Positions 15,406 through 38,937 of a DNA stretch of 39,384 nt are shown here, piece by piece (position 1 is the stretch's first letter; every line of letters begins with the position of its first letter). The notes under the pieces are model-generated. The model was not told the DNA's origin. It ran no database searches and saw only the letters and a list, made by a program, of their open reading frames with translations. The stretch comes from Caldimonas tepidiphila (GTDB taxonomy: Bacteria; Pseudomonadota; Gammaproteobacteria; Burkholderiales; Burkholderiaceae_C), in NCBI RefSeq assembly GCF_003569765.1, contig NZ_QXMG01000051.1:1-39384 (forward strand), in the 5' to 3' direction. A program made the translations under genes and the position numbers.

Positions 15406-15852
15406 TCAGCGACTGCGCACGACCATGCAGGTCGCCGTGGCGGTGGCCACCAGCCGCCCGTCCTGCACCAGCTCGCCGGCGACGTGACAGACGTCGCGGC
15501 CGCGGCGCACGATGCGCGCGCACCCACGCAGCCCGCCGGCGTGCGCCGGGCGCAGGAACGACAGATGCAGGTCCAGCGTGGCGCAGTGCTCGCCCGCGCC
15601 CAGCGTGGCGGTGACGAGAAAGGCCGTCACGTCGTCGAGCATCGCGCCCAGCATGCCGCCCTGCACCTGCCCGGCCGGGTTGAGAAAGGCCTCGCCCGCG
15701 CGGTAGTCGGACTCCAGCACGCCGGCCTCCAGATCTACGTTGACGATGCAACCGCCCAGCGTGGTGCTCACCGGGGGCGGCGTTGCCTCGCCGCGGCTCA
15801 GTCGGGCGAAGTAGCTGTCGCCTGCCAGGGGGAAAAGGGTGTCAGTGGCCAT
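15406..15852 (-). CDS. PaaI-type hotdog-fold thioesterase
   Basis: A 148-residue hotdog thioesterase. The active-site pattern N-P-x-G-x-V-Q-G-G-M-L-G-A-M-L-D-D is at residues 58-74 and the strand pattern LDLHLSFLRPAHAGGLRGCARIVRRGRDV follows in the second half. Such enzymes hydrolyse acyl- or aryl-CoA to free CoA, often when a pathway stalls. The ATG at 15852 is chosen because it overlaps the enoyl-CoA hydratase end by 11 bases and begins the conserved domain; the frame upstream of it is non-homologous. It is the last gene of the long minus-strand operon. Confidence 0.85.
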   Translation of the reverse strand: MATDTLFPLAGDSYFARLSRGEATPPPVSTTLGGCIVNVDLEAGVLESDYRAGEAFLNPAGQVQGGMLGAMLDDVTAFLVTATLGAGEHCATLDLHLSFLRPAHAGGLRGCARIVRRGRDVCHVAGELVQDGRLVATATATCMVVRSR

Positions 15853-16624
15853 GGAACTCGGGGGGGCGTTTCTGCAGACGGGCGGCCACGCCCTCGCGCT
15901 GGTCCTGGGAGGCGTCGGCACGGGCGATGTCGCGGGCCAGCGTCGCCGCGTCGAGCGTGCCGGCCGCGATGGCGTCTAGGTGCCGCTTCATCGGCAGCAG
16001 CGCCAGCGGCGCCATGCCGGCCAAGCGCTCGCTGAGAGCCGTAACGGCCGCCTCCAGCGCTTCGGGTTCCACCACCTCATCCAGAAAACCGCAGTCCAGC
16101 ATCTGTCGGGCGTCGAGTTCCTCCGCGGCCAGCAGCACCCGCTTGGCGGGGCCCAGGCCCAGACGGCGCACGTAGCGCTCCAGGCCGCCGCGGTAGAACA
16201 CGAGGCCGATCTGCGCTGCGGGCACGAACATGCGCGCCCCGGTCACGCCGATGCGGAAGTCGCAGGCCAGTGCCAGGTCGGTGGCGCCGCCGTGAAAGCC
16301 GCCGTTGATGGCGGCGATGGTGACCGGGCGCACCCGCTCGATCTCGCTGGCCAGCGCCTCGAACGAAGCGCCGGCGGTGGCCACTGCGCCCTCCGACGCG
16401 GCCTGCGCTAGGTTAAAGCCGCTGCAGAAGTGGCGGCCCTGTCCCCGCAGGCGCAGCACCAACACCTCTTTACGATCGTTCACCAGGCACAGTTGCTCGC
16501 GCAACAACGCCAGGTCCTCCAGTTCCAGCCGGTTGCCCACCTCCGGGCGGCGCAGCGTAATGGTGGCGATGCGGCCGTCCAGGGCCAGCTCGGGCGGCAG
16601 CCCGGGGGACTTGCTGTTGCTCAC
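15842..16624 (-). CDS. Enoyl-CoA hydratase/isomerase family protein (copy 1)
   Basis: A 260-residue crotonase-fold protein. The oxyanion-hole segments are visible: GRHFCSGFNLAQAA near residue 65 and AAINGGFHGGATDLALACDFRIG near residue 107. The usual catalytic Glu region is AAQIGLVFYRGGLERYVRRLG, where the first Glu of hydratases (P-E-x-x-x-G) is Gln (AAQIGL), so hydratase activity is uncertain and an isomerase, hydrolase or other crotonase activity is possible. It lies 12 bases after the first RraA paralogue in the operon. Confidence 0.85.
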   Translation of the reverse strand: MSNSKSPGLPPELALDGRIATITLRRPEVGNRLELEDLALLREQLCLVNDRKEVLVLRLRGQGRHFCSGFNLAQAASEGAVATAGASFEALASEIERVRPVTIAAINGGFHGGATDLALACDFRIGVTGARMFVPAAQIGLVFYRGGLERYVRRLGLGPAKRVLLAAEELDARQMLDCGFLDEVVEPEALEAAVTALSERLAGMAPLALLPMKRHLDAIAAGTLDAATLARDIARADASQDQREGVAARLQKRPPEFHGH

Positions 16625-16636
16625 GCCGTTACTCCG

Positions 16637-17299
16637 TCAACGAAAACCGTAAACCTGCATGGTGCTCTCGCCCGCGCGCAGTCGCTGCAAGATCGCGGCC
16701 TCCTCGGCCTCGCGCCGCTGGGCGCGGTCCACGATGGCTGCGGCCTGCTGCCGCGGCAGCACGCACACGCCGTCGCCGTCGGCTGCCACCAGATCGCCGG
16801 CATGGACCGTGACGTTACCCACCAGCACCGGCGCGCCGATCCAGCCCGTGGCGCCGTAGTCCTTGCCGGTGCCGCGGATGCACAGCCCGCGCGAGAAGAC
16901 GGGAAAACCAATCTCCTGCAGCAGTATGCCGTCGCGCACGCAACCGTCGATGACCAGACCGGCCAGGCCTCGGGCCTGCGCCATGGTGCTCATGATCTCG
17001 CCCCAGTACCCGTGCTCGAAGGCGCCGCCCACGTGCACCACCAGCACATCGTCCGGCCGCGCCACCGCCAGCGCCCGGTGCAGCCACAGGTTATCGCCGG
17101 GCGGTGAGTGCACTGTCAGCGCCGACCCGCAGGCGCGCATCGCGGCACCCACCGGCTTGATGGCCGAGGGCAGTGCGCCCACCTTCCCGCCGGCCTCGTG
17201 CAACGTCGCGGTGGGCAGCGCCGCCGCGGCGTCCACCAGCGCAGGCGGCAGGCGCTCGAAATCAGCTCGAGTAGTCAGGGCAGGGTCGATCCGGTTCAT
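16637..17299 (-). CDS. RraA-like / 4-carboxy-4-hydroxy-2-oxoadipate aldolase family protein (paralogue A)
   Basis: A 220-residue member of the RraA fold that includes the class II pyruvate aldolases LigK/GalC (CHA to pyruvate plus oxaloacetate). The signature W-G-E-I...G-L-A-G-L-V-I-D-G-C-V-R-D places the Arg-Asp pair used for substrate and metal binding. The FPVFSRG motif follows, and the C-terminal GDLVAADGDGVCVLPR is family-typical. Of the three tandem paralogues this one looks most like the true aldolases (Glu after WG, VRDG). Its ATG overlaps the preceding paralogue's stop (ATGA). Methyltransferase labels sometimes given to this family are historical mistakes. Confidence 0.85.
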   Translation of the reverse strand: MNRIDPALTTRADFERLPPALVDAAAALPTATLHEAGGKVGALPSAIKPVGAAMRACGSALTVHSPPGDNLWLHRALAVARPDDVLVVHVGGAFEHGYWGEIMSTMAQARGLAGLVIDGCVRDGILLQEIGFPVFSRGLCIRGTGKDYGATGWIGAPVLVGNVTVHAGDLVAADGDGVCVLPRQQAAAIVDRAQRREAEEAAILQRLRAGESTMQVYGFR

Positions 17300-17970
17300 G
17301 TAGCCTCGCGCGTTTGCAGCTGGTGGTACTTGAATTGCTTGCGCGCCTCGTCCAGGCGCATGCCACCACGCACGGCTTGGCGGATGCGGTCCTCGGCGGC
17401 TTCGATCGCTTCAGCCGTGTCCAGCACCTGGGCCTCGTGCTCCCTAGGGATCACGACGGCGCCATCGGCGTCCCCCTTGACAATGTCACCGGGCGCCACC
17501 CGCGCGTCGCCGATGTTCACCGGCACGCCAGTGGCCTCGACCTGCACCCGGTCCTTGCCGGTGCGCATCCAGTGGTCCTTGCTGAAAACCGGGTAGCCCA
17601 GCGACAGGCACAGGTGCGTGTCACGGCACACACCATCGATCAGGGTGCCCGCGATGCCACGGCGATGGGCAATCTCGGTGAGGATGTCGCCCCACACAGT
17701 GGCGTTATCGCGGCCTCCGTTGTCCAGCACGATCACGCTGCCGGGCGGCACGTCGTCGATGTAGTCGCCCACCGTGCCCGAAGGCTTGCCCGATGGGCCG
17801 TACAGCAGGGTCCAGGCGCGGCCGGCCATGCGGAAACCGCTGTCGCGCGGCTTGATGCGGTAACACTGGCCGGCGATGCCGAGCTTGTCGAGCGCATCGC
17901 TCAGGGTCGCGGTGTCCAGCTTCGCGGCACGTGCGACGTTGACGTCCTGCACGTTGTCGGTCGGATTCAT
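17296..17970 (-). CDS. RraA-like family protein (paralogue B)
   Basis: A 224-residue RraA/CHA-aldolase-fold protein. It carries WGDILTEIAHRRGIAGTLIDGVCRD and then YPVFSKD, so the Arg-Asp pair is kept while the flanking residues differ from paralogue A. The C-terminal GDIVKGDADGAVVIPRE matches the family. It starts at 17970 with GGAGAAC just upstream and ATGA overlap with the preceding gene, and its own stop overlaps the next start, giving three genes translated in tight succession. It may be a second aldolase, or a subunit or decarboxylase-type homologue; RraA proteins are usually trimers. Confidence 0.83.
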   Translation of the reverse strand: MNPTDNVQDVNVARAAKLDTATLSDALDKLGIAGQCYRIKPRDSGFRMAGRAWTLLYGPSGKPSGTVGDYIDDVPPGSVIVLDNGGRDNATVWGDILTEIAHRRGIAGTLIDGVCRDTHLCLSLGYPVFSKDHWMRTGKDRVQVEATGVPVNIGDARVAPGDIVKGDADGAVVIPREHEAQVLDTAEAIEAAEDRIRQAVRGGMRLDEARKQFKYHQLQTREAT

Positions 17971-18647
17971 TTGTTCTCCAGCATGTGTTCGTAGTTGCCG
18001 CCCATCACCTCGCCAATGGGCGTGCCTGCCAAGATGGCCTTGGCCATCGCCGCCTCGCGCCCGGCGATCAACTCGGCCGTCTCCAGCACGCGCTCGATGT
18101 CGGCGGCTGCAATGACGATGACCGCGCTGCGGTCGGCCAACACATAGTCGCCCGGGCACACCGTCATCTGGCCGCCGGCCTCGGGAGCGGCGCCGATTAC
18201 CACCGGCACCTGCGTGCCCAGCTCCACCACCCGGCCGCGCGCGGTGCGCGAGCTCAGGCTGCGGCTGAACACCGGGAATTCGTAGGCAATGGCCTCGTCC
18301 ACGTCGCGCAGCGGGCCATCGGCCACCACGCCGGCGACGCCGCGCACCTTGGCGCCCAGCGTGAGCAGGCCCCCCCAGCAGCCGGCCTCCACGCCGCTGC
18401 GCTGCTCGACGACGATCACGTCCTCGGGGCCGGCGACCTCGATGGCGGTGCAGCCCAGGTGCCGGGGCGGGCCGGGCGGCGGCTGGCCGGGGCCCACCTT
18501 CATGGTCACAGCCCGGCCGGCGATACGGCCGGCGCCGCTGCGTTGCGGTAAGCCGGTGATGGCGCCGGGCAGGCCCAGCTTGTCCAGCGCGTCGGACACC
18601 GCGCAGGCATCGAGCCGGCGCAAGCGTTGCACGTGGGGATTGGTCAT
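17967..18647 (-). CDS. RraA-like family protein (paralogue C)
   Basis: A 226-residue RraA-fold protein, first of three tandem copies in transcription order. AAAGGAG lies 6 bases before ATG. The core motif is WGGLLTLGAKVRGVAGVVADGPLRD followed by FPVFSRS, so Arg-Asp is conserved but the acidic residue after WG is Gly. The first 45 residues include a Pro-rich loop (GPGQPPPGPP) not seen in the other two. It follows the LigB-fold gene by 28 bases. The role is probably in the same oxo-acid cleavage as its neighbours, but divergence at the active-site rim suggests another substrate or a structural role. Confidence 0.82.
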   Translation of the reverse strand: MTNPHVQRLRRLDACAVSDALDKLGLPGAITGLPQRSGAGRIAGRAVTMKVGPGQPPPGPPRHLGCTAIEVAGPEDVIVVEQRSGVEAGCWGGLLTLGAKVRGVAGVVADGPLRDVDEAIAYEFPVFSRSLSSRTARGRVVELGTQVPVVIGAAPEAGGQMTVCPGDYVLADRSAVIVIAAADIERVLETAELIAGREAAMAKAILAGTPIGEVMGGNYEHMLENK

Positions 18648-18675
18648 GCGGTATCTCCTTTGTCTCTCGCGTGTG

Positions 18676-19677: not shown

Positions 19678-19697
19678 GAGATAGGGTCCTTCGAAGT

Positions 19698-20903
19698 TCA
19701 AACGACGTGGCACTCGCGCAGCGCCGCAATGCGTTCGGGGCTGTAGCCGAGGCCTGTCAGGATGGCGTCGGTCTGGTCGCCTTGGTGCGGAGCCGGCACC
19801 AAGGGTCCGGCCGCGCGCGGGTGGCGGGAGAACTGCATGGGCAGTCCCACTACCTCGATATCGCCCAGCTCGGGATGCGCCAGGGTCCGCGCGATGCCCA
19901 GGTGGCGCACCTGCGGGTCCTCGAACACCTGGTCCACCGCGTGGATCGGCCCGCAGGGCACGCCGGAGCGGATCAGCCGCTCGGTCCATTCGGCGGTGCT
20001 GCGCGTGCGCAGGATTGCGCCGACCGCCTCATTCACGCGCTCGCGGTTGGCCACACGCTCGGGGTCCGAGCCGAAGCCCGGCTCGTCGATCAACTGCGGC
20101 GCCTCGATTGCCACGCACAGCCGCTTCCACATGGTCTGGCCGATGGCGGCCAGATTCAGATAGCCGTCCAGCGTCGGGAACACACCGGTGGGCACGGTCA
20201 GTGGGTGCTCGTTGCCGGTGGCGCTCGGCACCTTGCCGTCGATCAGCCATTGCGCGGCCTGGAAGTCGAGCATTGCGATCTGGGATTCCAGCAGCGAGGT
20301 CTGCACCCACTGGCCCTCGCCCGTCGCCTCCCGCTCCAGCAGGGCCGCCATGATCGCCTGGGCGCAGAAATGGCCGGCGCACAGGTCGGCCAACGGGATT
20401 CCCACCCGCATCGGCCCGTCCCCGGGCTTGCCAGTGACGCTCATCAGCCCGCCCATGCCTTGGGCGATGGAGTCAAAGCCGGGCCAGCCGGCATAGGGGC
20501 CGTCCTGGCCGAAGCCGGAGATGCTGGCGTAGACCAGGCGCGGGTTGATGGCGCGCAGCTCGTCCGGGCCGATGCCCAGACGGTGCTTGACATCGGGCCG
20601 GTAGTTCTCGATGAACACGTCCGCCTCGCGCACCAGGGCATGCAGGATCTCCAGGCCGGCCCGGTCTTTCATGTTGAGCGTGAGGCTCTCCTTGTTGCGG
20701 TGCAGGTTCTCGTAGTCGGCGCGGTTGTGGTCGCGCCCGCCAATCATGTCGTCACCCCCCGGCGCGCCGGGCGGGATCTCCAGCTTGATGACGCGGGCGC
20801 CCAGGTCGGCGAAGGTGCGCACCGCTGTGGGGCCGGCGCGCACGCGCGAGGCGTCCAGGATGGTGAAGCGCGATAGGGGGCCGCTGCGGGGCGTGGTGCT
20901 CAT
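19698..20903 (-). CDS. Class III (CaiB/BaiF/Frc) CoA transferase
   Basis: A 401-residue family III CoA transferase, moving CoA between carboxylic acids through an enzyme-bound anhydride on an aspartate. The catalytic residue is probably Asp 173 in GIPLADLCAGHF. Family motifs: FADLGARVIKLE near residue 31, DVFIENYRPDV near 95, YASISGFGQDGPYA near 125 and the small-domain R-S-G-V-P-C-G-P-I-H near 310. The start codon overlaps the upstream DUF35 stop (ATGA). It is a second CoA-activating enzyme in the same operon as the ADP-forming synthetase, so it may recycle CoA from an end product to the incoming acid. Confidence 0.93.
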   Translation of the reverse strand: MSTTPRSGPLSRFTILDASRVRAGPTAVRTFADLGARVIKLEIPPGAPGGDDMIGGRDHNRADYENLHRNKESLTLNMKDRAGLEILHALVREADVFIENYRPDVKHRLGIGPDELRAINPRLVYASISGFGQDGPYAGWPGFDSIAQGMGGLMSVTGKPGDGPMRVGIPLADLCAGHFCAQAIMAALLEREATGEGQWVQTSLLESQIAMLDFQAAQWLIDGKVPSATGNEHPLTVPTGVFPTLDGYLNLAAIGQTMWKRLCVAIEAPQLIDEPGFGSDPERVANRERVNEAVGAILRTRSTAEWTERLIRSGVPCGPIHAVDQVFEDPQVRHLGIARTLAHPELGDIEVVGLPMQFSRHPRAAGPLVPAPHQGDQTDAILTGLGYSPERIAALRECHVV

Positions 20904-21295
20904 GCCGCACCTCCTTCGTTTAGGGTGAACATGGGCACGGCCGGGCCGCCCTGCGAGGGCTGGAAGCGCACCTGCACGCGGTCGCCGATGCGCGCGCGCG
21001 CCGGGTCGCAGTCCACCAAGTTGGTCAGGAGGGTGACGCCCTCGTCGAGCGTGACCATCGCCAGAGTGTGGGCGGTATCGCCCTGCCCCATCGTGCTGAA
21101 GGAGTACAGCGTGCCGGTGCCGGCGGACTCGACCCAGTGCGTGTCCTCGCTCAGGCAGAAGGGGCAGATGTCGCGCGGGTAGTGATGCACTTGGCCGCAG
21201 GCGGCGCAGCGCTTGAGCAGCAGCCGGCCCTGGTCGGCGGCGTCCCAGAACGGCTTCGATTCGGGCAGCACGTGCGGAGCGGGAATCTTGCGCAT
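20900..21295 (-). CDS. DUF35 / OB-fold acyl-CoA-associated zinc-ribbon protein
   Basis: A 131-residue DUF35 protein: an N-terminal rubredoxin-like zinc ribbon with two CxxC pairs (KRCAACGQ and ICPFC, about residues 30-50) followed by an OB-fold domain (GTGTLYSFSTMG; GDRVQVRF). Such proteins pair with thiolase-like enzymes and bind acyl-CoA. The start at 21295 has CTGGAGG upstream and fits the conserved beginning; the longer frame starts inside the thiolase. It follows a thiolase-like gene with a tiny ORF between them and overlaps the CoA transferase start. Confidence 0.9.
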   Translation of the reverse strand: MRKIPAPHVLPESKPFWDAADQGRLLLKRCAACGQVHHYPRDICPFCLSEDTHWVESAGTGTLYSFSTMGQGDTAHTLAMVTLDEGVTLLTNLVDCDPARARIGDRVQVRFQPSQGGPAVPMFTLNEGGAA

Positions 21296-21297
21296 GG

Positions 21298-22623: not shown

Positions 22624-23604
22624 TCATTGCTCGGGCTTGAAGCCGGTGGCCTTGATGACGGGCCCCCAGTAGGCGAGCTCCTTGCGCACGACGGCGTCCA
22701 TCTCGGCGGCGGGGCGGAAGTCCGGGTTCAGCGTCGCCCGGTTGACCAGGGTGTCGCGCACTTCGGGCAGGGCCAGCGCATACTTCAGCGCGTTCTGCAC
22801 GCGCTCGAGCTGCGCCGGCGGCGTGCGGGTCGGCGCCCACATGCCGGTCCAGGCGTCGCCGGCATCGATGGCGATGCCCTGCTCCATGAGGGTGGGCACG
22901 TCGGGCATCAGCGGCGAACGCTTGGCGCTGAACACGCCCACCACCTGCACCTTGCCAGCCTTGTGGTGCGGCAGGATGTCGCCGGCGGTCATGATGCCGG
23001 CCGGCACCTGTCCGCCCAGCAGATCGGTGACTAGCGGGCCGTTGCCGCGGAAGGGGACCATTTGCAGGTTCACCCCGATGGCCTTGCTGAGTTGGAGGCC
23101 GGTGAAGTGGGTTTGGCCCCCTGCCCCGGCGGTGCCAAAGCTCGCTTCCATTGGGTGGGCCTTGATGCGGGCGACGTATTCCTTGGCGCTCCGTACGCCG
23201 AGCTGGTTGCCCACGGCCAGCACCATCGGGTAGGACACCAGCATGGCCACTGGTGTGAAGTCCTGCAGCATGTCGTACCGGAGCATCGCCGGCGGGTAGA
23301 GCAAGGCCTGGAACACCGGCGTCGCGTTGGGCGCGATCATGTAAGTCAGGCCGTCGGGCTGCGCCGCCTTGAGCGCCTGGGCCGCCAGGCGCCCGCCGGC
23401 GCCGGGCTTGTTCTCCACAATCACCGGCTGCTTCAGCACGGTGGCCATCTTCTCGGCCAGCACGCGGGCCACCGTGTCAGTGGAGCCGCCGGGCGGAAAG
23501 CCCACCAGCAGCCGGATCGTCTGATCGGACTGCGCCTGCGCTCCCAGCGACAGGCCCAGGGCGCCGGCCAGCAGCGCGGCGTTGAAGGTCTTGCGGGTGA
23601 TCAT
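22624..23604 (-). CDS. Bug/TctC family periplasmic substrate-binding protein (copy 4)
   Basis: A 326-residue Bug protein with a signal peptide at residues 1-24 (ITRKTF, hydrophobic core, GAQAQS). Motifs: LLVGFPPGGSTDTVARVLAE, ENKPGAGGRLAAQALKAAQPDG, YDMLQDFTPVAML and FGTAGAGGQTHFTG. GGAGAGA precedes the ATG. It is placed between the second acyl-CoA dehydrogenase and the thiolase. It is most like copy 5 (APNATP, KRSPLMPD and GWT/AWTGMWA segments are shared), which is in the divergent arm, so the two may bind related ligands of the same pathway. Confidence 0.93.
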   Translation of the reverse strand: MITRKTFNAALLAGALGLSLGAQAQSDQTIRLLVGFPPGGSTDTVARVLAEKMATVLKQPVIVENKPGAGGRLAAQALKAAQPDGLTYMIAPNATPVFQALLYPPAMLRYDMLQDFTPVAMLVSYPMVLAVGNQLGVRSAKEYVARIKAHPMEASFGTAGAGGQTHFTGLQLSKAIGVNLQMVPFRGNGPLVTDLLGGQVPAGIMTAGDILPHHKAGKVQVVGVFSAKRSPLMPDVPTLMEQGIAIDAGDAWTGMWAPTRTPPAQLERVQNALKYALALPEVRDTLVNRATLNPDFRPAAEMDAVVRKELAYWGPVIKATGFKPEQ

Positions 23605-23639: not shown

Positions 23640-24776
23640 TCAGGCGAGCGCGTGCGCCGCCGACATCCGCTGCAGGTGCCAGGCGGCGTCCCCGAACAGC
23701 TGGCCGATGACCATCAGGCGCTTGGCGTAGTGCGGCACGCGGCATTCGTCGGTCATGCCCATCGCGCCGTGCATTTGGATGGCCGCCAGCCCCTGGGCCC
23801 GGCCGAGCTGGCCGGCCAGTGCCTTAGCGGCCGAAACCAGGCGGCGGCGCTGGGCCGCGTCGCCGGCATCCACAGCCATTGCGGCGGCGCAGGCCATGGA
23901 CTTGAGCTGTTCCAGCGCGATCGCCATGTCGGCCACGCGGTGCTGCAGCACTTGGAACTTCGCCAGCGGCGCACCGAACTGCCTGCGCGTGCGCAGGTGC
24001 TCGGTGGTGTGCGCCAGCAGCGCGTCCACCGCGCCCGCGGCTTCGGCACATAGGGCGGCGGTGGCCGCGTCCAGCGCCGCCTCCACCGCGTCGGCCGCCC
24101 GGCCCGGCATCCCCAGCACCTGGTCGCTTGGCACCCGCACATCGCGCAGGGTGACGTGCGCGGCACGGCGCCCGTCTAGGGTGTCGAAGCCCTGCACCTT
24201 GACGCCCGGCGCATGCACGTCGACCGCCAGCACGGTGAGGCCCTCGCGATCCGCCGCGTCGCCCGCAGTGCGCGCCACTACCAGCAGCAGGCCGGCGCTG
24301 TCGCCGTGCAGCACCAGGGTCTTGCGCCCCTGCAGCAGCCACCCGTCGCGGGTCTCGCGCGCCCGGGTCTCGACTTGGTGCCAGTCGTAGCGCGTGCCCT
24401 CCTCGTACAGCGCCACGGCAGCCTGCAGCTCGCCGCCGGCCAGCGGCGGCAGCCAGCGCTGGCGCTGGACGTCCGACCCCAGGGTGGCGAGCAGCCAGCC
24501 CGCCATCACGGTACTGGGGACGAAAGCGCCGCCGCCGAGCGCGCGGCCCAGTTCCTGCGCCACCAGCATCACCTCCACGGCGCCCTGGCCGCTGCCGCCC
24601 GCCTCCTCGGGCAGCGGCAGGCCCAGCAGGCCGAGCTCGGCCATGGCGGCCCAGCGCTGGCGCGCCTGCTGCGCGTCCTCCGGCTTGCCGCGGTGCTCGG
24701 CCGGGTATTCGCCATCGCAGAAGCGCTGCACCGCGTCGCGCAGCGCCAGGTGGTCGTCGTTGAATGAGAAGTCCAT
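23640..24776 (-). CDS. Acyl-CoA dehydrogenase family protein, small/partner subunit
   Basis: A 378-residue acyl-CoA dehydrogenase-fold protein. N-terminal helices (FSFNDDHLALRDAVQRFC), then GLPLPEEAGGSG; the middle beta domain is degenerate, lacking the usual flavin-contacting W-I/T-S motif; the C-terminal segment RRQFGAPLAKFQVLQHRVADM and QMHGAMGMTDE is well conserved. The start at 24776 (MDFSFN) is chosen from the conserved first residues. It directly follows the other dehydrogenase by 22 bases. A long/short dehydrogenase pair often forms an alpha2-beta2 heterotetramer in breakdown of steroids and alicyclic or dicarboxylic acids (FadE and PimCD types). The substrate is unknown. Confidence 0.88.
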   Translation of the reverse strand: MDFSFNDDHLALRDAVQRFCDGEYPAEHRGKPEDAQQARQRWAAMAELGLLGLPLPEEAGGSGQGAVEVMLVAQELGRALGGGAFVPSTVMAGWLLATLGSDVQRQRWLPPLAGGELQAAVALYEEGTRYDWHQVETRARETRDGWLLQGRKTLVLHGDSAGLLLVVARTAGDAADREGLTVLAVDVHAPGVKVQGFDTLDGRRAAHVTLRDVRVPSDQVLGMPGRAADAVEAALDAATAALCAEAAGAVDALLAHTTEHLRTRRQFGAPLAKFQVLQHRVADMAIALEQLKSMACAAAMAVDAGDAAQRRRLVSAAKALAGQLGRAQGLAAIQMHGAMGMTDECRVPHYAKRLMVIGQLFGDAAWHLQRMSAAHALA

Positions 24777-24798: not shown

Positions 24799-25992
24799 TC
24801 AGAAGGAGTCCAGCGCGGCACGTGCGATGAGGTTGCGCTGCACCTCGTTCGTGCCGCCGTAGATCGTGAGCTTGCGCGAGTCGAGGCAGTTGGCCGCCAG
24901 CGCCGCGAGCGCCGGATCGGTGGCCGCCTCCTCCAGGTGCTCCAGCTCCTGCGCGCGCAGCGAGAAGGGCACGGCGTCGGGGCCAGCGATGTCCACCAGG
25001 GCCTCGAAGATGGCCTGGCGCAGCTCAGTGCCGCGCACCTTGAGCAGAGACGCTTCCACAGCCGGGATGCGGCTTTGCTGGTGCGCGCTGAGCAGGCGCA
25101 GCGCGGTGAACTCCAGCGCCATCAGCTCGGCCTCGAACTGCGCCAGCCGCCCCTGCATCACCGCGTCCCGGCCCAGCCCCTGCTGCGCGGCCAGCCGGCG
25201 GGCGCGGGCGAGTTGCTGCTTGCACGAGCCAATGCCGGCGATGCCGGTGCGTTCGTGGCCCAGCAGGTACTTGCCGCAGGACCAGCCCTTGTGCAGCTCG
25301 CCCACCAGGTTCTCCACCGGCACACGCACGTTGTCCAGGAAGCACTCGTTGAGGTCGGTGCCGCCCTCGAGCATGCGGATCGGCCGCACCGTCAGGCCCG
25401 GCGACTTCATGTCGATCAGCAGGAAGGAGATGCCTTCCTGCGGCTTGGCCGCCTGGGGGTCGGTGCGCACCAGCGCGAACATCATCGAGCACCACTGCGC
25501 GTACGAAGTCCAGACTTTGTGGCCATTGACGACGAAGTGCTTGCCGTCGGGCTCCAGCACGGCGGTGGTGCGCACCGCCGCCAGGTCTGAGCCGGCCCCA
25601 GGCTCGGAGAAGCCCTGCGCCCACCAGGTGTTGCTCTGGCGGATGTCGGGCAGGTATTTCCTCTTCTGCGCCTCGGTGCCGAAGGCGATCAGCACCGGCC
25701 CCAGCATCTGGATGCCGCTGGCGATGATGCGCGGCGCGCCCCCCAGCAGCGTCTCCTCGTCGAAGATGTAGCGCTGCACGTGGCTCCAGCCCGGGCCGCC
25801 GTGCTCGACCGGCCAGCCCGGTGTGAGCCAGCCGCGCGACTCAAGGATGCGAAACCAGGTGACGTAGTCGCGGTGCTCGAGCCGCAGGCCGAGTTCGACC
25901 TTGCGCTGGATGTCGGCCGGCAGCCGCTCGCGGACGAAGGCGCGCACTTCCTGGCGGAAGGCCTCCTCCTCGGGGGAAAACTGCAGTCTCAT
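24799..25992 (-). CDS. Acyl-CoA dehydrogenase family protein, large subunit (YGGT type)
   Basis: A 397-residue FAD-dependent acyl-CoA dehydrogenase, oxidising an acyl-CoA to the 2,3-enoyl-CoA and passing electrons to ETF. Motifs: GWPVEHGGPGWS near residue 60, QGFSEPGAGSDLAAVRTTA near 125-140, VNGHKVWTSYAQW (flavin contact) near 160, and the C-terminal IYGGTNEVQRNLIAR. The usual YEG Glu is Gly 379 here (Y-G-G-T-N-E), as in the heterotetramer-type enzymes, so the catalytic Glu must be elsewhere, possibly in LGHERTGIAGIG near residue 245. It is 11 bases after the CoA synthetase gene and before its partner. Confidence 0.92.
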   Translation of the reverse strand: MRLQFSPEEEAFRQEVRAFVRERLPADIQRKVELGLRLEHRDYVTWFRILESRGWLTPGWPVEHGGPGWSHVQRYIFDEETLLGGAPRIIASGIQMLGPVLIAFGTEAQKRKYLPDIRQSNTWWAQGFSEPGAGSDLAAVRTTAVLEPDGKHFVVNGHKVWTSYAQWCSMMFALVRTDPQAAKPQEGISFLLIDMKSPGLTVRPIRMLEGGTDLNECFLDNVRVPVENLVGELHKGWSCGKYLLGHERTGIAGIGSCKQQLARARRLAAQQGLGRDAVMQGRLAQFEAELMALEFTALRLLSAHQQSRIPAVEASLLKVRGTELRQAIFEALVDIAGPDAVPFSLRAQELEHLEEAATDPALAALAANCLDSRKLTIYGGTNEVQRNLIARAALDSF

Positions 25993-28148: not shown

Positions 28149-28227
28149 GCAGTGAACCTTTCGGAATGACGGAGGAAGCGGGAATAGGGATCAGGTGAAG
28201 TCATTCTGGCATATCAAAAACAATTTT

Positions 28228-28237
28228 TGGTACACCA
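28228..28237. promoter_or_regulatory. Candidate GntR operator, minus-operon side
   Basis: TGGTACACCA has TGGT/ACCA arms and lies about 80 bases upstream of the CoA synthetase start. FadR-subfamily GntR proteins commonly bind TGGTxxxxACCA-like sites, so it is a plausible operator for the neighbouring regulator. Confidence 0.4.
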
Positions 28238-29726: not shown

Positions 29727-30725
29727 ATGATCATCGACTCCCACGCCCACATCGTCATGCCGCCCGAGAGCTTCCGCTTCATGGCGGAGCTGGTCGGCGG
29801 CCGCGCCAACCCCAACACGCTCCCAAAGATCCCCGACGAGTCGGTGCGCAAGGTGGCCGAGGAGCTGGTGCGCAGCATGGACAAGGTGGGCACCGACATG
29901 CAGTTCATCTCGCCGCGGCCCTACCTGCAGATGCACTCGGTCAAGCCGGGCCGTGTGACCGAGCTCTGGTCGGTCCACTGCAACGACCTCATTGCGCGCT
30001 TCGTGCAGATGTTCCCGGACCGCTTTCGCGGCGTGGCCGGCCTGCCGCAGTACATGGACGAGCCGCTGGCGCTGCGCGCCATCCCGGAGCTGCGCCGCTG
30101 CGTCGAGCAGCTGGGCTTCGTCGGCTGCCTGATCAACCCGGACCCGACCGAAGGCCTGGGCGACCCGCCCGGCTTGGGCGACCCCTACTGGCATCCGTTG
30201 TACCAGGCGATGACGGAGCTGGACGTGCCCGGCCTGATCCACTCGGCCGGCAGCTGCAGCGCCCGCGAGTCCTACACGCTCAAGTTCATCAACGAGGAGA
30301 GCATCGCCGTGATCTCCCTGCTGGGGGCCAAGACCTTCGACACCTTCCCCGACCTGAAGATCGTGGTGGCCCATGCCGGCGGGGCCATCCCCTACCAGAT
30401 GGGGCGCTTCCGGTCCTGGAACGTGCGCAAGGGCGAGAAGCAGAGCTTCGACGAGCAGCTCAGGAAGCTGTACTTCGACACCTGCAACTACAGCAAGGAG
30501 GCCATCGAGCTGCTATGCAAGGTGGCCGGCACCGACAACGTGCTGTTCGGCACCGAGAAGCCCGGCACCGGCAGCGCGCGCGACCCGTTGAGCGACCGCG
30601 ACTACGACGACATGAAGCCGGTGATCGAGAGCATCGACTGGCTCACCGAGGCCCAGAAGCGCGACATCTTCGAGTGCAACTGCAAGCGTCTCTACACCCG
30701 CGCCTTCCGCCACTACGCCGACTGA
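29727..30725 (+). CDS. Amidohydrolase-2 family protein, LigJ-like (4-oxalomesaconate hydratase type)
   Basis: A 332-residue metal-dependent TIM-barrel amidohydrolase. Zn ligands: His 6 and His 8 (DSHAHI), His 172 (LIHSAGSC), His 216 (VAHAGGAIPYQMGRF) and Glu 277 (FGTEKPGTG). LigJ uses His-x-His, two His and a Glu with nearly identical spacing (from memory, 6, 8, 178, 223, 284). Most decarboxylases of the family have Asp in place of the Glu. This favours hydration of 4-oxalomesaconate to CHA, upstream of the CHA-aldolase homologues encoded in the divergent arm. The start at 29727 begins at the conserved MIIDSH. A decarboxylase or lactonase role is the alternative. Confidence 0.82.
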   Translation: MIIDSHAHIVMPPESFRFMAELVGGRANPNTLPKIPDESVRKVAEELVRSMDKVGTDMQFISPRPYLQMHSVKPGRVTELWSVHCNDLIARFVQMFPDRFRGVAGLPQYMDEPLALRAIPELRRCVEQLGFVGCLINPDPTEGLGDPPGLGDPYWHPLYQAMTELDVPGLIHSAGSCSARESYTLKFINEESIAVISLLGAKTFDTFPDLKIVVAHAGGAIPYQMGRFRSWNVRKGEKQSFDEQLRKLYFDTCNYSKEAIELLCKVAGTDNVLFGTEKPGTGSARDPLSDRDYDDMKPVIESIDWLTEAQKRDIFECNCKRLYTRAFRHYAD

Positions 30726-30761: not shown

Positions 30762-31997
30762 ATGCCAATGACCCGGGAAGACAACGAGCTGCTCACGCGC
30801 GTCGAGAACGGCGCGCCGATGGGCGAGATGATCCGCCAGCACTACTGGATACCCGCCGTGCCCTCCTTCAAGCTCGAGCCCGACGGCGCGCCAGTGCGCG
30901 TGCGCCTGCTCGGCACGAACTACGTGGCCTTCCGCGCTACCGACGGCAGCGTCGGCGTGCTCGACGAGCAGTGCCCGCACCGCAAGGCTTCGCTGGCCCT
31001 GGCCCGCAACGAGGACAACGGCCTGCGCTGCCTCTACCACGGCTGGAAATTCAACGTGAAGGGCGAGGTAGTCGAGGCACCCAACCACGCGGGCAACCAG
31101 GAGGTGTTCTGCAAGCACGTGCGGGTGAACCGCTACACCACGGTGGACCGCGGCGGCATCGTCTGGGTTTGGCTTGGCAAGGGCGAGGCCCCGCCCCCCT
31201 TCCCCGAGCTGCCCTTCATAGACCTACCGGCCCACCAGCGCTCAGTCACTAGCGTAGAGGTGCCCACCAACTGGGTGCAGGGCGTCGAGGCCTCAATGGA
31301 TTCCTCGCACGTCGGCGTGTTGCACGAGTCCACCACCCAGATCACCGCTGGCGGCGGCAACGAGCGCCTGCTGATGACCCAGGCTCTGGCCCCCAAGCTG
31401 GAGTTCGAGGACCGGCCCTACGGCTACCGCTACGCTGCGCTGCGCTCGCTGCCCGACGACCGGGTTTACGCCCGCGTCAACAACTTCGTGATGCCTTGGT
31501 ACGGCATCATCTGCCCGCCCGACGCCGCCAGCCCCACCACGGTGTTCTTCTCCACCCCGGTGGACGACGTCACCCACCGCGCCTGGTTCGTGCACTACAA
31601 CCCGACGCGCCCGCTGGGCATGACTGTCATGTCGGCCTCGCCCGACGTGTGGAACTTCCCCCCGCTGCCCCCGGGTAAGCCCCGTGACAACTGGGGCCAG
31701 AACCGCGACCTGATGAAGCGCGGCCACAAGACCGGCTTCCCGCAGCACCTGGGCACCGAGGACTTCGCGATGTTCATCAGCCAGGGCCCCATCCACGACC
31801 GCACCGACGAGCAGCTGTGCTCGGCCGATGGCGCCGTGATCCGCGTGCGCCAGCTGCTGCTGCGCGCAGCCCGCGAGTTCATGGAAGGCAAGCTGCCGAG
31901 CTTGGCTCACCACCCCGAGCTGGACTACCGCAAGGTGCGCTCAGTCGGCGGCGTGATTCCCGCAGGCAACGACTGGCGCACCTTGGCCGACGCCTGA
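30762..31997 (+). CDS. Rieske aromatic ring-hydroxylating oxygenase (phthalate 4,5-dioxygenase/VanA type)
   Basis: A 411-residue terminal oxygenase alpha subunit. The Rieske [2Fe-2S] ligands are Cys 71, His 73, Cys 90 and His 93 (CPH, CLYHGW). The mononuclear iron site has the bridging Asp 180 with His 183 and His 188 (DSSHVGVLHES); the third carboxylate is expected near GTEDFAMF at about 330. There is no beta-subunit gene, as in the phthalate/vanillate (homomultimer) class. GAGGAG precedes ATG by 8 bases. Reductase gene is two genes downstream. It may add two oxygens to, or demethylate, an aromatic acid; the substrate is not determinable. Confidence 0.93.
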   Translation: MPMTREDNELLTRVENGAPMGEMIRQHYWIPAVPSFKLEPDGAPVRVRLLGTNYVAFRATDGSVGVLDEQCPHRKASLALARNEDNGLRCLYHGWKFNVKGEVVEAPNHAGNQEVFCKHVRVNRYTTVDRGGIVWVWLGKGEAPPPFPELPFIDLPAHQRSVTSVEVPTNWVQGVEASMDSSHVGVLHESTTQITAGGGNERLLMTQALAPKLEFEDRPYGYRYAALRSLPDDRVYARVNNFVMPWYGIICPPDAASPTTVFFSTPVDDVTHRAWFVHYNPTRPLGMTVMSASPDVWNFPPLPPGKPRDNWGQNRDLMKRGHKTGFPQHLGTEDFAMFISQGPIHDRTDEQLCSADGAVIRVRQLLLRAAREFMEGKLPSLAHHPELDYRKVRSVGGVIPAGNDWRTLADA

Positions 31998-32076: not shown

Positions 32077-33048
32077 GTGAAGCTCGCTCGCCGCCAACTG
32101 CTAGCTTTCACCGCCCTTGCGCTCGCCGTCCCCGGCGCCGCCTTCGCCCAGAAACCACCGATCCGCGTGGTGGTGGGCTTCCCGCCCGGAGGCGCCACTG
32201 ACGCCATCGCCCGCGCCGTGGTCGACCGCCTGCCCGACATCCTGGGACAGCCGGTGATCGTGGAAAACAAGCCCGGGGCGGGTGGACGCATCGCCGCCGA
32301 CGCGGTGCTGGCCGCCCCCGCCGACGGCTTAACCTTCATGTTGGCGCCCAACGCCACGCCCACCTTCCTGACCCTGGTGCCGGGCCACATCGTCCGCTGG
32401 CACATCCTCAAGGACTTCACCGGCGTCGCCTCGATCGCCAGCTACCCGCTGGGCATGGGCGTGGCGGCGAACATCGGCGTCACCAACGCGCGCGAGTTCA
32501 TCGAGTGGGTCCGCAAGAATCCCAACAAGGCCAGCTACGGCACGCCGGGCCAGGGCGGGCAGAACGCCTTCCTGGGCGAGCAGCTCGCCAAGGCCGCCGG
32601 CATCGAGCTGCCGATGACGCCGTACAAGGGCTCGCCGCCGATGGTGACGGACCTGGTGGGCGGCCACGTGCCCTCGGCGATCAGCCTGATGGACGGCCTG
32701 ATGGTGCACCACCGCTCCGGCCGCATTCGCGTCATTGGCGTCTTCACCAAGAAGCGCTCGCCGCTGATGCCCGACATCCCGACCTTTGCCGAGCAGGGCC
32801 TCGACGTCACCGCCGGCGAGGGCTGGACCGCGATGTGGGCCAAGGCCGGCACGCCGGGGACCGAGGTCCAGCGTATGCAGGCAGCGGTGCGGCAGGTGCT
32901 GGAGATTCCCGAGGTGCGCGAGTTGATGATCAAGCGCTTGTGGGCCTACCCGAGCTACCGCAGCGGCGCCGACACCGAGGCCGCGCAGCGCGCCGAACTG
33001 GCGTACTGGGAGCCGATCATCAAGGCGTCGGGTTTCCGGGCGCAGTGA
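32077..33048 (+). CDS. Bug/TctC family periplasmic substrate-binding protein (copy 5)
   Basis: A 323-residue Bug protein starting at GTG (32077) with CAGGAG 8 bases upstream. Signal peptide at residues 1-23 (LARRQLL, hydrophobic core, GAAFAQ). Motifs: VVVGFPPGGATDAIARAVVD, ENKPGAGGRIAADAVLAAPADG, HILKDFTGVA and YGTPGQGGQNAFLG. Located between the Rieske oxygenase and its reductase, so its ligand is probably the aromatic acid that the oxygenase attacks. It resembles copy 4 of the opposite arm more than the others. Confidence 0.93.
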   Translation: MKLARRQLLAFTALALAVPGAAFAQKPPIRVVVGFPPGGATDAIARAVVDRLPDILGQPVIVENKPGAGGRIAADAVLAAPADGLTFMLAPNATPTFLTLVPGHIVRWHILKDFTGVASIASYPLGMGVAANIGVTNAREFIEWVRKNPNKASYGTPGQGGQNAFLGEQLAKAAGIELPMTPYKGSPPMVTDLVGGHVPSAISLMDGLMVHHRSGRIRVIGVFTKKRSPLMPDIPTFAEQGLDVTAGEGWTAMWAKAGTPGTEVQRMQAAVRQVLEIPEVRELMIKRLWAYPSYRSGADTEAAQRAELAYWEPIIKASGFRAQ

Positions 33049-33062
33049 GGCCAGGACAATTC

Positions 33063-34031: not shown

Positions 34032-34045
34032 CCCTTTCACACACC

Positions 34046-34834: not shown

Positions 34835-34850
34835 CCGGAGGGACCCACCC

Positions 34851-36200
<1,350 letters not shown>

Positions 36201-36227
36201 GGACACGGAGAGAACGAGGGGGCCTGC

Positions 36228-36371: not shown

Positions 36372-36409
36372 CCAAGGCCCCCTCTCGATACGCAAGAAAG
36401 GACGTCACC

Positions 36410-37189: not shown

Positions 37190-37243
37190 AACGCGGCAGG
37201 GATGACGGATGAAAAACAGGTTCCAACACAGGAGATGAATTGC

Positions 37244-37993
37244 ATGAAGGCACTGGTCGCAATCAAGCGCGTCGCGGACTACAACGTGAAGGTGCGCGTG
37301 AAATCCGACGGCACGGGGGTGGACATCGCCAACGTCAAGATGAGCATGAACCCCTTTGACGAGATCGCCGTCGAGGAGGCCGTGCGCCTGAAGGAAAAGG
37401 GGGTGCTCTCCGAGGTGGTGGCGGTGTCGTGCGGCGTCGCGCAGTGCCAAGAGACGCTGCGCACGGCGATGGCGATCGGTGCGGACCGCGCGATTCTGGT
37501 CGAGACCGACGCCGAACTACAGCCGTTGGCGGTGGCCAAGATCCTCAAGGCGCTGGTGGACAAGGAGCAGCCCGACCTCGTGTTCTTGGGCAAGCAGGCG
37601 ATCGACGACGACTGCAACCAGACAGGCCAGATGCTCGCGGCTCTGCTCGATTGGCCGCAGGCCACGTTCGCCTCGAAGGTCGAGGTGGCCGACGGCCATT
37701 CGACCGTCACGCGCGAGGTCGACGGCGGTTTGGAGACGGTGAAGCTCAAACTGCCGGCGGTGGTCACGAGTGACCTGCGCCTGAACGAGCCGCGCTACGT
37801 GACGCTGCCCAACATTATGAAGGCCAAGAAGAAGCCGCTGGAGAACGTTAAACCCGACGCGCTGGGCGTGGACGTGACGCCGCGCATCAAGACGCTGAAG
37901 GTCTCCGAGCCGCCGAAGCGCGGCGCCGGCGTGAAGGTGCCCGACGTGGCGACGCTGGTCGCGAAGCTCAAGAACGAAGCCAAGGTGATCTGA
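37244..37993 (+). CDS. etfB: Electron transfer flavoprotein beta subunit
   Basis: A 249-residue ETF beta subunit, the usual length. Begins [19 protein letters not shown] and has [17 protein letters not shown] near residue 30, the AMP/flavin-site pattern [22 protein letters not shown] near 110-130 and the ...KKKPLE segment. The start at 37244 has AGGAGA 8 bases upstream; an in-frame ATG at 37202 would add 14 unlikely residues. With EtfA it carries electrons from the acyl-CoA dehydrogenases to the quinone pool through ETF dehydrogenase, which is not in the window. Confidence 0.96.
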
Positions 37994-38004
37994 GGAGCGA
38001 AACG

Positions 38005-38937
38005 ATGACTGCACTCGTCATTGCCGAACACGACAACGCGGGCCTGAAGGCAGCCACGCTCAACACCGTCACTGCGGCGCTGGCCTGCAGCGGCAAGGTC
38101 CACGTGCTCGTGGCCGGCTCCAATGCCGCGGCCGCAGTCCAGGCCGCCGCGCAGATCCAGGGCGTCGCCAAGGTGCTGCACGCCGACGCGCCGCAACTCG
38201 CCGAAGGCCTGGCCGAGAACTTGGCGGCGCAGGTGCTGGCGGTCACCGTCGGCTACAGCCACATCCTCTTCCCCTCCACCGCCTCGGGAAAGAACGTCGC
38301 ACCGCGTGTCGCGGCCAAGCTCGACGTCGCACAGCTCTCCGACATCACCCAAGTCGTGAGCGCCAACACCTTCGAGCGCCCGATCTACGCCGGCAACGCG
38401 ATCGCAACCGTGCAGAGCGCCGACTCGGTGAAGGTCATTTCCGTGCGCACCACGGCCTTCGAAGCGGCGGCGGCAATTGGCGGCAATGCGGCGGTCGAGA
38501 GCGTTTCCGTCGTGGACGATGCCGGCCTCTCCAGTTTCGTTGGTCGTGAGTTCACCAAGAGCGACCGGCCGGATCTGACGGTGGCCAAGATCATCGTCTC
38601 CGGCGGCCGCGCGCTGGGGAGCAGTGAGAAGTTCATGGAGCTGCTCACGCCACTGGCTGACAAGCTCAATGCCGCGCTCGGCGCTAGCCGAGCGGCCGTC
38701 GATGCGGGTTATGCGCCCAACGACTGGCAAGTGGGCCAGACGGGCAAGATCGTAGCGCCGCAGCTCTACATTGCAGCGGGCATCTCCGGCGCAATCCAAC
38801 ACTTAGCGGGCATGAAGGATGCCAAGGTGATTGTGGCGATCAACAAGGATCCCGAGGCGCCGATCTTCGGCATTGCCGACTATGCACTGGAGGCCGATAT
38901 CTTCACCGCCGTACCCGAGATGCTGGCGGCGCTCTGA
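38005..38937 (+). CDS. etfA: Electron transfer flavoprotein alpha subunit
   Basis: A 310-residue ETF alpha subunit. The C-terminal FAD domain is clear: [13 protein letters not shown] near 210, [61 protein letters not shown] pattern to the end (residues 235-295). The N-terminal domain begins [20 protein letters not shown] lies just before ATG, 11 bases after etfB. Last intact gene of the plus-strand arm; the electron acceptor for the two dehydrogenases of the opposite arm. Confidence 0.96.

What the first reader, a model, noticed from the sequence alone, without database searches (positions are those of the whole stretch)
15406..38937. Possible undescribed composite aromatic/alicyclic-acid pathway of about 23 kb divided into two divergent arms around a GntR gene
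Seen: a divergent layout with a Rieske oxygenase plus reductase, LigJ-like hydratase, LigB-fold protein and three CHA-aldolase homologues, mixed with CoA synthetase, CoA transferase, two acyl-CoA dehydrogenases, two crotonases, hydroxyacyl-CoA dehydrogenase, thiolase-DUF35, thioesterase and ETF. Known: LigB, LigJ and CHA aldolase are the steps of gallate/protocatechuate 4,5-cleavage. Inferred: ring attack and CoA side-chain or alicyclic beta-oxidation are combined in one regulon, with no LigC/LigI homologues, so the ring-fission product would be a direct oxalomesaconate-type acid.
Basis: partly seen in the sequence, partly recalled or inferred. Interest (0 to 1): 0.82.

Follow-up and report, generated by a model that had tools for sequence, protein, structure and literature searches.

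The report
LigX/LigZ/LigY-like ring cleavage with beta-oxidation
A conserved two-armed bacterial gene cluster appears to break down a lignin-type, probably biaryl, aromatic acid by trimming a side chain as a CoA ester and then opening the ring; it resembles a known lignin-dimer pathway more than the gallate pathway first proposed.

Summary
In detail: all the named genes are there, on two divergent arms around a GntR gene, and the cluster is conserved. I found 17 clusters in 16 genomes (Ramlibacter, Variovorax, Cupriavidus, Azohydromonas, Paraburkholderia, Vreelandella and others; one rearranged, one reduced). A shared operator-like inverted repeat lies between the arms in 14 of 14 intergenic regions examined.

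The 'LigJ' is in the LigY clade (C-C hydrolase of the DDVA biphenyl pathway), split from the LigJ clade at 100/100 support. The genome has a separate LigJ-clade gene on contig C21. The LigB-fold protein is LigZ-like. SYK-6's ligZ-rraA-rraA-ligY genes are preceded by a CoA synthetase, crotonase, thiolase and DUF35 gene.

Best reading: CoA beta-oxidation of a propanoid side chain, joined to Rieske/LigZ-like/LigY-like opening of a 5-carbon-substituted (probably biaryl) benzoate, with RraA-fold enzymes finishing the C6 fragment. The substrate is not shown. Most novel reading: an RraA pair, at 31 of 49 LigY-clade loci (one or both genes) and 0 of 18 LigJ-clade loci, supplies the hydratase step listed as unidentified for SYK-6.

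The parts
26004..28148 (-). ADP-forming acyl-CoA synthetase (acs), 714 aa
   Evidence: CoA_binding_2, Succ_CoA_lig, ATP-grasp_5; 43% to SYK-6 gene upstream of ligZ
24799..25992 (-). acyl-CoA dehydrogenase, PimC-like large subunit (acadL)
   Evidence: Pfam; TIGR03204 392 bits, below its cut-off
23640..24776 (-). acyl-CoA dehydrogenase, PimD-like small subunit (acadS)
   Evidence: Pfam; TIGR03203 316 bits, below its cut-off
22624..23604 (-). TctC-type solute receptor (TTT4)
   Evidence: PF03401
21381..22601 (-). thiolase, PRK08142 subfamily
   Evidence: NF006010 708 bits, cut-off 462; ECGGSAP or DCGGSAP site in all 14 two-arm loci where it was read
20900..21295 (-). DUF35 / ChsH2-type OB-fold partner of the thiolase
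   Evidence: PF01796, PF12172; start
19698..20903 (-). CaiB-type (family III) CoA transferase
   Evidence: PF02515 383 bits
18676..19677 (-). LigZ-like class III extradiol dioxygenase (LigB fold), 333 aa
   Evidence: PF02900 49.8 bits, cut-off 26.3; 35% to SYK-6 LigZ, conserved H12, GDDQTE, H186, H252, E289
17967..18647 (-). RraA1: RraA-fold paralogue with G at the D position of D-X20-R-D
   Evidence: PF03737; motif
17296..17970 (-). RraA2: RraA-fold paralogue with intact D-X20-R-D
   Evidence: PF03737; motif
16637..17299 (-). RraA3: CHA-aldolase-like, E-X20-R-D
   Evidence: PF03737; NF006731 188.5 bits, cut-off 179, but TIGR02798 174.8 against 304.5; motif
15842..16624 (-). crotonase A (enoyl-CoA hydratase family)
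   Evidence: PF00378
15406..15852 (-). 4HBT-type thioesterase
   Evidence: PF13622, PF03061; start
28207..28237 (.). operator-like inverted repeat TGGCATAT-N16-TACACCA between the arms
   Evidence: equivalent pattern in 14 of 14 orthologous intergenic regions, 0 in 200 shuffles; pattern chosen after seeing the alignment
28483..29238 (+). GntR/FCD regulator
   Evidence: PF00392, PF07729
29284..29673 (+). RidA-family protein
   Evidence: PF01042; present in 13 of 13 two-arm loci
29727..30725 (+).
   Evidence: best PDB matches are LigY 5vn5/6e6i 273 bits against LigJ about 220; LigY clade 100/100
30762..31997 (+). Rieske oxygenase R1, LigXa_C/phthalate-dioxygenase type
   Evidence: PF19301, PF00355; PDB 7fjl 229 bits; keeps equivalents of PDO D178, S179, R244, not R207
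32077..33048 (+). TctC-type solute receptor (TTT5)
   Evidence: PF03401
33063..34031 (+). oxygenase reductase
   Evidence: PF00111 + PF00175
34046..34834 (+). crotonase B, PRK08150
   Evidence: NF006013 356 bits, cut-off 232; 53% to SYK-6 gene upstream of ligZ
34851..36200 (+). 3-hydroxyacyl-CoA dehydrogenase
   Evidence: PF02737, PF00725
36410..37189 (+). SDR oxidoreductase
   Evidence: PF13561; present in 7 of 13 two-arm loci
37202..38937 (+). ETF beta and alpha; probably a general electron carrier, not a conserved member
   Evidence: PF01012, PF00766; etfB seen in 1 of 13 two-arm loci

Best explanation
The cluster encodes one catabolic route with two linked halves. First, an aromatic acid with a C3 (propanoid) side chain is made a CoA ester (acs, CaiB), dehydrogenated if saturated (acadL/acadS), hydrated (crotonase), oxidised (HACDH) and cut by thiolase-DUF35, leaving an aryl-carboxylate (thioesterase/CaiB free the CoA). 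Second, the Rieske oxygenase and its reductase make a catechol on a benzoate ring that carries a carbon substituent R next to the new OH. The LigZ-like dioxygenase opens the ring, and the LigY-like enzyme hydrolyses the C-C bond to R-COOH plus 4-carboxy-2-hydroxypenta-2,4-dienoate (CHPD) or a close analogue. RraA-fold enzymes hydrate and cleave that to pyruvate-type products. By homology with SYK-6, R is most likely an aryl group, i.e. a lignin or cell-wall 5-5'-type dimer. Shown: gene content, conservation, family and clade placement, shared operator-like site. Inferred: every reaction, the order of the two halves, and the substrate.
For: LigY placement by score, motifs and tree. LigZ-like site and similarity. 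Rieske in the LigXa_C/PDO family. 10 of 17 clusters also carry a second Rieske 57-60% identical to SYK-6 LigXa. SYK-6 locus L127 has acs, crotonase, thiolase and DUF35 upstream of ligZ-rraA1-rraA2-ligY. The Paraburkholderia-type loci (L122, L108, L168) put crotonase, thiolase and R1 (about 50%) with LigB and LigY; an AMP-forming ligase was confirmed in L122 and L168 and a DUF35-HACDH fusion in L122. Conserved two-arm cluster. Conserved operator-like repeat. PMC12673573 (abstract and passages) proposes a hydratase plus HMG aldolase, annotated as RraA family, for the CHPD fragment.
Against: No activity or expression data. G110 has R1, LigB and CoA genes on an 18.6 kb contig but no LigY (none at E<=1e-60 in the genome) and no RraA, reductase, CaiB or ACAD match on that contig, so LigY is not universal. 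The window genome has no LigXa orthologue (best match 43% over 187 residues), so methoxylated DDVA itself is unlikely to be its substrate. The LigB is only 35% identical to LigZ. In G129 the CoA set sits with gentisate-dioxygenase-like and 3-hydroxybenzoate-6-hydroxylase-like genes, so its product may be a simple hydroxybenzoate. No LigW-type partner was assigned (14 PF04909 matches in the genome, not sorted), so the fate of R-COOH is open. The Vreelandella cluster is rearranged and shows no crotonase B, HACDH or GntR match in the stretch read.
Confidence: 0.55

Rival explanations
1. Ring opening comes first. LigY releases an alkyl or alicyclic acid R-COOH, and the CoA genes then beta-oxidise that acid, as in steroid or terpenoid degradation.
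For: LigY-type hydrolysis yields a free acid that would need activation; PimC/PimD-like dehydrogenases and a thiolase-DUF35 pair related to Ltp2 and BbsAB suit branched or cyclic acids.
Against: SYK-6, where the other product of LigY is 5-carboxyvanillate (an aryl acid; PMC6874591 passages), still has CoA genes by ligZ. The same CoA set in G129 sits with hydroxybenzoate-type genes, and that genome has no LigB match at E<=1e-20.
Confidence: 0.25
2. One reading: gallate/protocatechuate-type cleavage by LigB to oxalomesaconate, LigJ hydration, CHA aldolase.
For: Amidohydrolase family shared by LigJ and LigY; RraA3 passes one CHA-aldolase model.
Against: LigY clade at 100/100 with a separate LigJ-clade gene in the genome; no RraA1 or RraA2 match at the 18 LigJ-clade loci.
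Confidence: 0.07
3. Two unrelated pathways that only share a promoter region.
For: The CoA set occurs alone in G129; the ring set occurs with no or only weak CoA-gene matches nearby in G097, G109 and G069; the thiolase at 69% or more occurs in 16 of the 150 sampled genomes, 12 of them without a LigB match at 77% or more.
Against: CoA and ring genes are interleaved on both arms; LigB orthologues (60-84%, besides the window's own) are found with all 17 clusters; SYK-6 and Paraburkholderia group the same functions in other arrangements.
Confidence: 0.1

Closest known systems
DDVA (5,5'-dehydrodivanillate) pathway of Sphingobium sp. SYK-6: ligXa, ligZ, ligY
   Same: Rieske, LigZ-type dioxygenase, RraA pair and LigY-type hydrolase; CoA synthetase, crotonase, thiolase and DUF35 lie upstream in SYK-6 too
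   Different: Window has a different Rieske type (R1, 30% to LigXa) and no LigXa orthologue; adds ACADs, HACDH, CaiB, RraA3, RidA and a fused reductase; GntR instead of the MarR-type DdvR named in PMC6874591 (passages)
Protocatechuate 4,5-cleavage / gallate pathway (LigAB or DesB, LigJ, LigK)
   Same: Class III dioxygenase fold, amidohydrolase fold, one CHA-aldolase-like RraA
   Different: Amidohydrolase falls with LigY in the tree; the dioxygenase shares LigZ's DQxE site (comparison with LigB itself is recalled)
3-(3-hydroxyphenyl)propionate (mhp) meta pathway, present next door at 5915-14312
   Same: Class III dioxygenase, C-C hydrolase, hydratase, aldolase logic; phenylpropanoid theme
   Different: Separate operon and regulator; no CoA-ester side-chain step; beside the two-arm cluster in only 3 of 15 clusters whose left flank I read
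Thiolase-DUF35 systems BbsAB and Ltp2-ChsH2
   Same: Thiolase-like protein paired with a ChsH2-type OB-fold protein
   Different: Substrate unknown here; whether it acts by thiolysis or retro-aldol cleavage is not settled

Membership tests
LigJ (4-oxalomesaconate hydratase) | Groups with characterised LigJ rather than LigY | tested here: not met
   LigJ clade (21 rows) and LigY clade (68 rows) separate at 100/100; window in the latter
LigY (meta-cleavage C-C hydrolase) | Groups with SYK-6 LigY and keeps its motifs | tested here: met
   Same clade, in a subclade (24 rows) sister to the one holding SYK-6 LigY; SPRP, INEE and E.PG.GS retained
LigY (meta-cleavage C-C hydrolase) | C-C hydrolase activity on a ring-fission product | not testable with these tools
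   -
LigZ-type class III extradiol dioxygenase | LigB-fold domain above Pfam cut-off and a DQ.E site as in LigZ | tested here: met
   PF02900 49.8 bits against 26.3; site shared with LigZ, though identity to LigZ is only 35%
Rieske oxygenase, LigXa_C/PDO family | Rieske + LigXa_C domains above cut-off | tested here: met
   61.2 and 111.7 bits
LigXa (DDVA O-demethylase) | Orthologue of SYK-6 LigXa | tested here: not met
   R1 30% to LigXa; no close match in the genome with a 57% relative of LigXa as query
HMG/CHA aldolase (RraA fold) | NCBIfam cut-off | tested here: inconclusive
   RraA3 passes NF006731 and fails TIGR02798; RraA1 and RraA2 pass neither
HMG/CHA aldolase (RraA fold) | D-X20-R-D motif (definition recalled; PMC5065237 passages only mention two motifs) | tested here: inconclusive
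   RraA2 D, RraA3 E, RraA1 G
DDVA pathway as a whole | LigXa + LigZ + LigY + LigW | tested here: inconclusive
   LigZ- and LigY-like present, LigXa orthologue absent, LigW not assigned among 14 PF04909 matches

The most novel reading that the evidence does not exclude
LigY-type pathways share a two-protein RraA module that supplies the missing hydratase. RraA1 has lost the aldolase motif residue (G in 44 of 44 distinct sequences) and would hydrate 4-carboxy-2-hydroxypentadienoate. RraA2 (D in 44 of 44) would cleave the resulting HMG to two pyruvates. This would be a new activity for the RraA fold, and it would fill the step listed as 'NI' for SYK-6 in Table 2 of PMC12673573. The two-arm cluster would then be a complete, previously unassigned route from propanoid-bearing biaryls to central metabolism in Burkholderiales.
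Probability: 0.3. Interest if true: 0.75.

Novelty: new variant of a known kind. Interest (0 to 1): 0.58.

Why it matters
In the papers I saw, LigX/LigZ/LigY chemistry is described for Sphingobium SYK-6; here a relative, joined to CoA side-chain degradation, is a conserved regulon-like cluster in many Burkholderiales. It points to a concrete substrate class (propanoid-bearing biaryl or 5-carbon-substituted aromatic acids). It offers a testable function for the CoA genes in the SYK-6 DDVA locus, whose role was not stated in the passages I read. It also names a specific protein pair as candidates for a hydratase step that a 2025 paper lists as unidentified in SYK-6.

Tried and rejected
Rejected: LigJ identity of the amidohydrolase. 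Rejected: the mhp neighbour as a constant part of the cluster (3 of 15 left flanks read). Rejected: ETF as a conserved member (1 of 13). Rejected: the TGGTACACCA palindrome in the window as the operator; it is not conserved as such, whereas the wider repeat is.

Led nowhere: typing LigY/LigJ by short motifs left 24 of 80 loci unassigned, so I used the tree instead. The L122 thiolase was translated in a wrong frame and that row is ignored. The thiolase nucleophile comparison did not settle thiolysis versus retro-aldol: Cys in the two-arm clusters, Ser in L168, Ile in SYK-6. Paper searches for ferB2, diferulate and SLG_076xx/07730 gave nothing on these CoA genes. A search for vceA/vanilloyl acetic acid listed one Novosphingobium paper that I did not open, the rest off topic. 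I did not predict any structure. My home-made gene caller misses some genes that tblastn finds. Recalled, from no call: roles of PDO R207/R244, the wording of the D-X20-R-D motifs, LigB His61 as an iron ligand.

In the neighbour counts the 13 two-arm loci were set apart from the other 49 LigY-clade loci because their flank is too short to reach ligB.


Full report
Gene content. The window is the whole of contig C43 of the held genome. Both arms mix two kinds of gene. The minus arm has the CoA synthetase, two acyl-CoA dehydrogenases, thiolase, DUF35 and CaiB, followed by the LigB-fold protein and three RraA-like proteins. The plus arm has the amidohydrolase, Rieske oxygenase and reductase, followed by crotonase B, 3-hydroxyacyl-CoA dehydrogenase and SDR. 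Next to it, at 5915-14312, lies a 3-(3-hydroxyphenyl)propionate (mhp) cluster that the finding did not mention: MhpA, MhpB, MhpD, MhpE, MhpF and the regulator each pass at least one NCBIfam cut-off; the MhpC-like hydrolase does not.

The amidohydrolase is LigY-like. The best solved relatives are LigY 5vn5/6e6i at 273 bits, then LigJ at about 220 bits. Stretches shared with LigY and not LigJ include GTDMQ.ISPRP, INEE and E.PG.GS. A tree of 89 rows splits a LigJ clade (21 rows, with SYK-6 LigJ and the window genome's own C21 copy) from a LigY clade (68 rows, with SYK-6 LigY and the window protein), both at 100/100. Inside the LigY clade the window's group (24 rows, 98/86) is sister to the group with SYK-6 LigY (44 rows, 97/88). 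So this enzyme most likely cuts a C-C bond in a ring-fission product.

The dioxygenase and the oxygenase. The LigB-fold protein is 35% identical to SYK-6 LigZ. At the DQ.E site it shares with LigZ, 46 of 52 aligned rows have Q, 5 have H and 1 has E, two pairs of rows being duplicates. That this site matches LigB His61 is recalled, not computed. The Rieske protein (R1) has the LigXa_C domain and its nearest PDB relatives are 7fjl and 7fhr; 7fhr is labelled a phthalate 4,5-dioxygenase, and I take 7fjl for one from recall. R1 keeps the equivalents of PDO D178, S179 and R244 but not R207. R244 is kept in all 16 other two-arm R1 proteins aligned and in the 3 Paraburkholderia-type ones, while the 9 LigXa-type proteins aligned have W there. 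The roles of these residues are recalled; the paper was not held. Ten of 17 clusters also carry a second Rieske (R2) 57-60% identical to SYK-6 LigXa: nine inside the plus arm, and one (Vreelandella, L172) beyond the LigB side. The window and six others lack it in the stretch read. The window genome has no orthologue; the other six genomes were not searched whole.

Conservation. In a sample of 150 family genomes, R1 and LigB at 76% identity or more and the thiolase at 86% or more all occur in the same 4 genomes: the own one, G070, G110 and G138. LigY at 83% or more occurs in 3 of those 4. Thirteen of the 80 show the two-arm cluster: 12 of 13 have acs and both ACADs, 13 of 13 have a Rieske gene and RidA, and 12 of 13 have crotonase B and HACDH. 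The exceptions are a contig end (L075) and the rearranged Vreelandella cluster (L079). Together with G070, G110, Paraburkholderia sp. LEh10 (L196) and the window, and counting G138 once (L054 = L075), this makes 17 clusters in 16 genomes. Besides the window's own, LigB at 60-84% is present for the 16 others. In G138 the cluster is split over three contigs.

Regulation. The acs-gntR intergenic regions of 14 of the 17 clusters were examined. All 14 contain TGGCATRY, 16-17 bases, and a TACACCA-like half, against none in 200 sets of dinucleotide shuffles. The pattern was chosen after seeing the alignment and the sequences are related, so this is support, not proof, for joint control by the GntR protein.

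The modules exist apart and are joined elsewhere. The CoA set alone (acs, both ACADs, thiolase, DUF35, with crotonase B and HACDH on the other strand) is present in the same-genus genome G129, beside gentisate-dioxygenase-like and 3-hydroxybenzoate-6-hydroxylase-like genes that fall below their NCBIfam cut-offs. The ring set (RraA genes, LigY, LigB and a LigXa-type Rieske; reductase and RidA each seen in 2 of 3) is in G069, G097 and G109, two of these at contig ends; no CoA-gene match was found around it in G097 and G109, while in G069 a weak crotonase (30%) and CaiB (36%) match lie some 6 kb or more away. But SYK-6 has acs (43%), crotonase B (53%), thiolase (33-34%) and DUF35 (32%), then an alpha/beta hydrolase and a 439-aa ORF that I take to be ddvK without having scanned it, upstream of ligZ-rraA1-rraA2-ligY. 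Paraburkholderia-type loci combine a crotonase, thiolase, R1 at about 50%, LigB and LigY; an AMP-forming ligase was confirmed in L122 and L168, a DUF35-HACDH fusion in L122, and RraA genes were found in L108 and L122. PMC6874591 (passages) describes SLG_07650 (ddvT) as upstream of the DDVA genes. The locus tags of the CoA genes between it and ligZ were inferred by me from gene order, and a search for those tags found no paper in the held library. Three arrangements of similar functions make a single pathway the better reading.

RraA genes. RraA1-like or RraA2-like genes are found at 31 of 49 LigY-clade loci outside the two-arm group and at 0 of 18 LigJ-clade loci; both together are at 26. RraA3-like genes are at 18 of those 49 and at 9 of 18 LigJ-clade loci. 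A label-free clustering of neighbours within 6 kb gave LigB (27 of 49), RraA (25 of 49), Rieske (13 of 49) and one unlabelled group, which I did not scan but which reads like a transporter ATPase (13 of 49), as the commonest partners among the 49. Other unlabelled groups were not annotated, so a rare or unlabelled hydratase is not excluded. At the first position of D-X20-R-D, RraA1 has G in 44 of 44 distinct sequences and RraA2 has D in 44 of 44; assignment to RraA1, 2 or 3 was by best hit. RraA3 outside the 18 LigJ loci has E in 31 of 35 and D in 4 (one of the four is from the window genome's own C21 LigJ-clade neighbourhood). RraA3-like sequences at the LigJ loci have D in 7, E in 1 and no match in 1 of 9. 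PMC12673573 (abstract and passages) proposes hydration then HMG aldolase, annotated as RraA family, for the CHPD fragment, names UxuA as the hydratase of its own strain, and lists the SYK-6 hydratase as 'NI'. That RraA1 is this hydratase is my inference.

What speaks against my reading. G110 keeps R1, LigB and CoA genes without LigY. The gene left of its LigB is a 703-residue alpha/beta-hydrolase-domain protein that might replace LigY, but that is a guess. No enzyme for R-COOH was assigned. The SDR, a possible diol dehydrogenase, is in only 7 of 13 two-arm loci, so R1 as a dioxygenase needing it is not supported. Eighteen of the 49 LigY-clade loci show neither RraA1 nor RraA2 in the stretch held. 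The substrate remains open.

Verdict. The cluster is real and conserved. It is a new variant of a known kind, the LigX/LigZ/LigY-type pathway, joined to CoA side-chain degradation. No description was found in the library searches made; for most of the papers listed there I saw only the listing, and the library holds only open-licence papers.

Noticed in passing
window 5915-14312: mhp cluster (IclR regulator, MhpA, B, D, F, E, and a MhpC/BphD-like hydrolase, plus a TctC receptor); also beside the two-arm cluster in Azohydromonas (L173, L197) and Paraburkholderia sp. LEh10 (L175).
   Followed up: partly
L050 13521-14801 and equivalents: Second Rieske oxygenase, 57-60% identical to SYK-6 LigXa, with 10 of 17 two-arm clusters but missing from the window genome.
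   Followed up: yes
L182 (G129, same genus) 3988-18783: CoA module without LigB/LigY, next to a gentisate-dioxygenase-like and two 3-hydroxybenzoate-6-hydroxylase-like genes.
   Followed up: partly
L127 672-7500 (Sphingobium sp. SYK-6): CoA synthetase, crotonase, thiolase, DUF35, an alpha/beta hydrolase and a 439-aa ORF (taken for ddvK, not scanned) lie upstream of ligZ in the known DDVA locus.
   Followed up: partly
L052 1858-3969 (G110): A 703-aa Abhydrolase_10 protein sits beside LigB where LigY and the RraA genes are missing; possible replacement hydrolase.
   Followed up: no
LigB alignment, window residues 97-102: LigZ-family dioxygenases mostly have DQ.E (46 of 52 rows) where, as recalled, LigB has the iron ligand His61; 5 rows have His and 1 Glu.
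   Followed up: no
G070:C33:139881-141101: A further R1-like Rieske (58% to the window's) with GntR, TctC and reductase matches nearby (L051).
   Followed up: no
L072/L074 and L168 (one MAG, G153): One genome holds two two-arm clusters, and one of them lies beside a Paraburkholderia-type cluster.
   Followed up: no
window 2490-3449, 10464-11438, 14416-15393, 22624-23604, 32077-33048: Five TctC-type solute receptors in 39 kb; TctA/TctB partners were not looked for.
   Followed up: no
window 652-4795: SulP-type sulfate permease, TctC receptor and a sulfatase gene in a row, perhaps for an arylsulfate.
   Followed up: no
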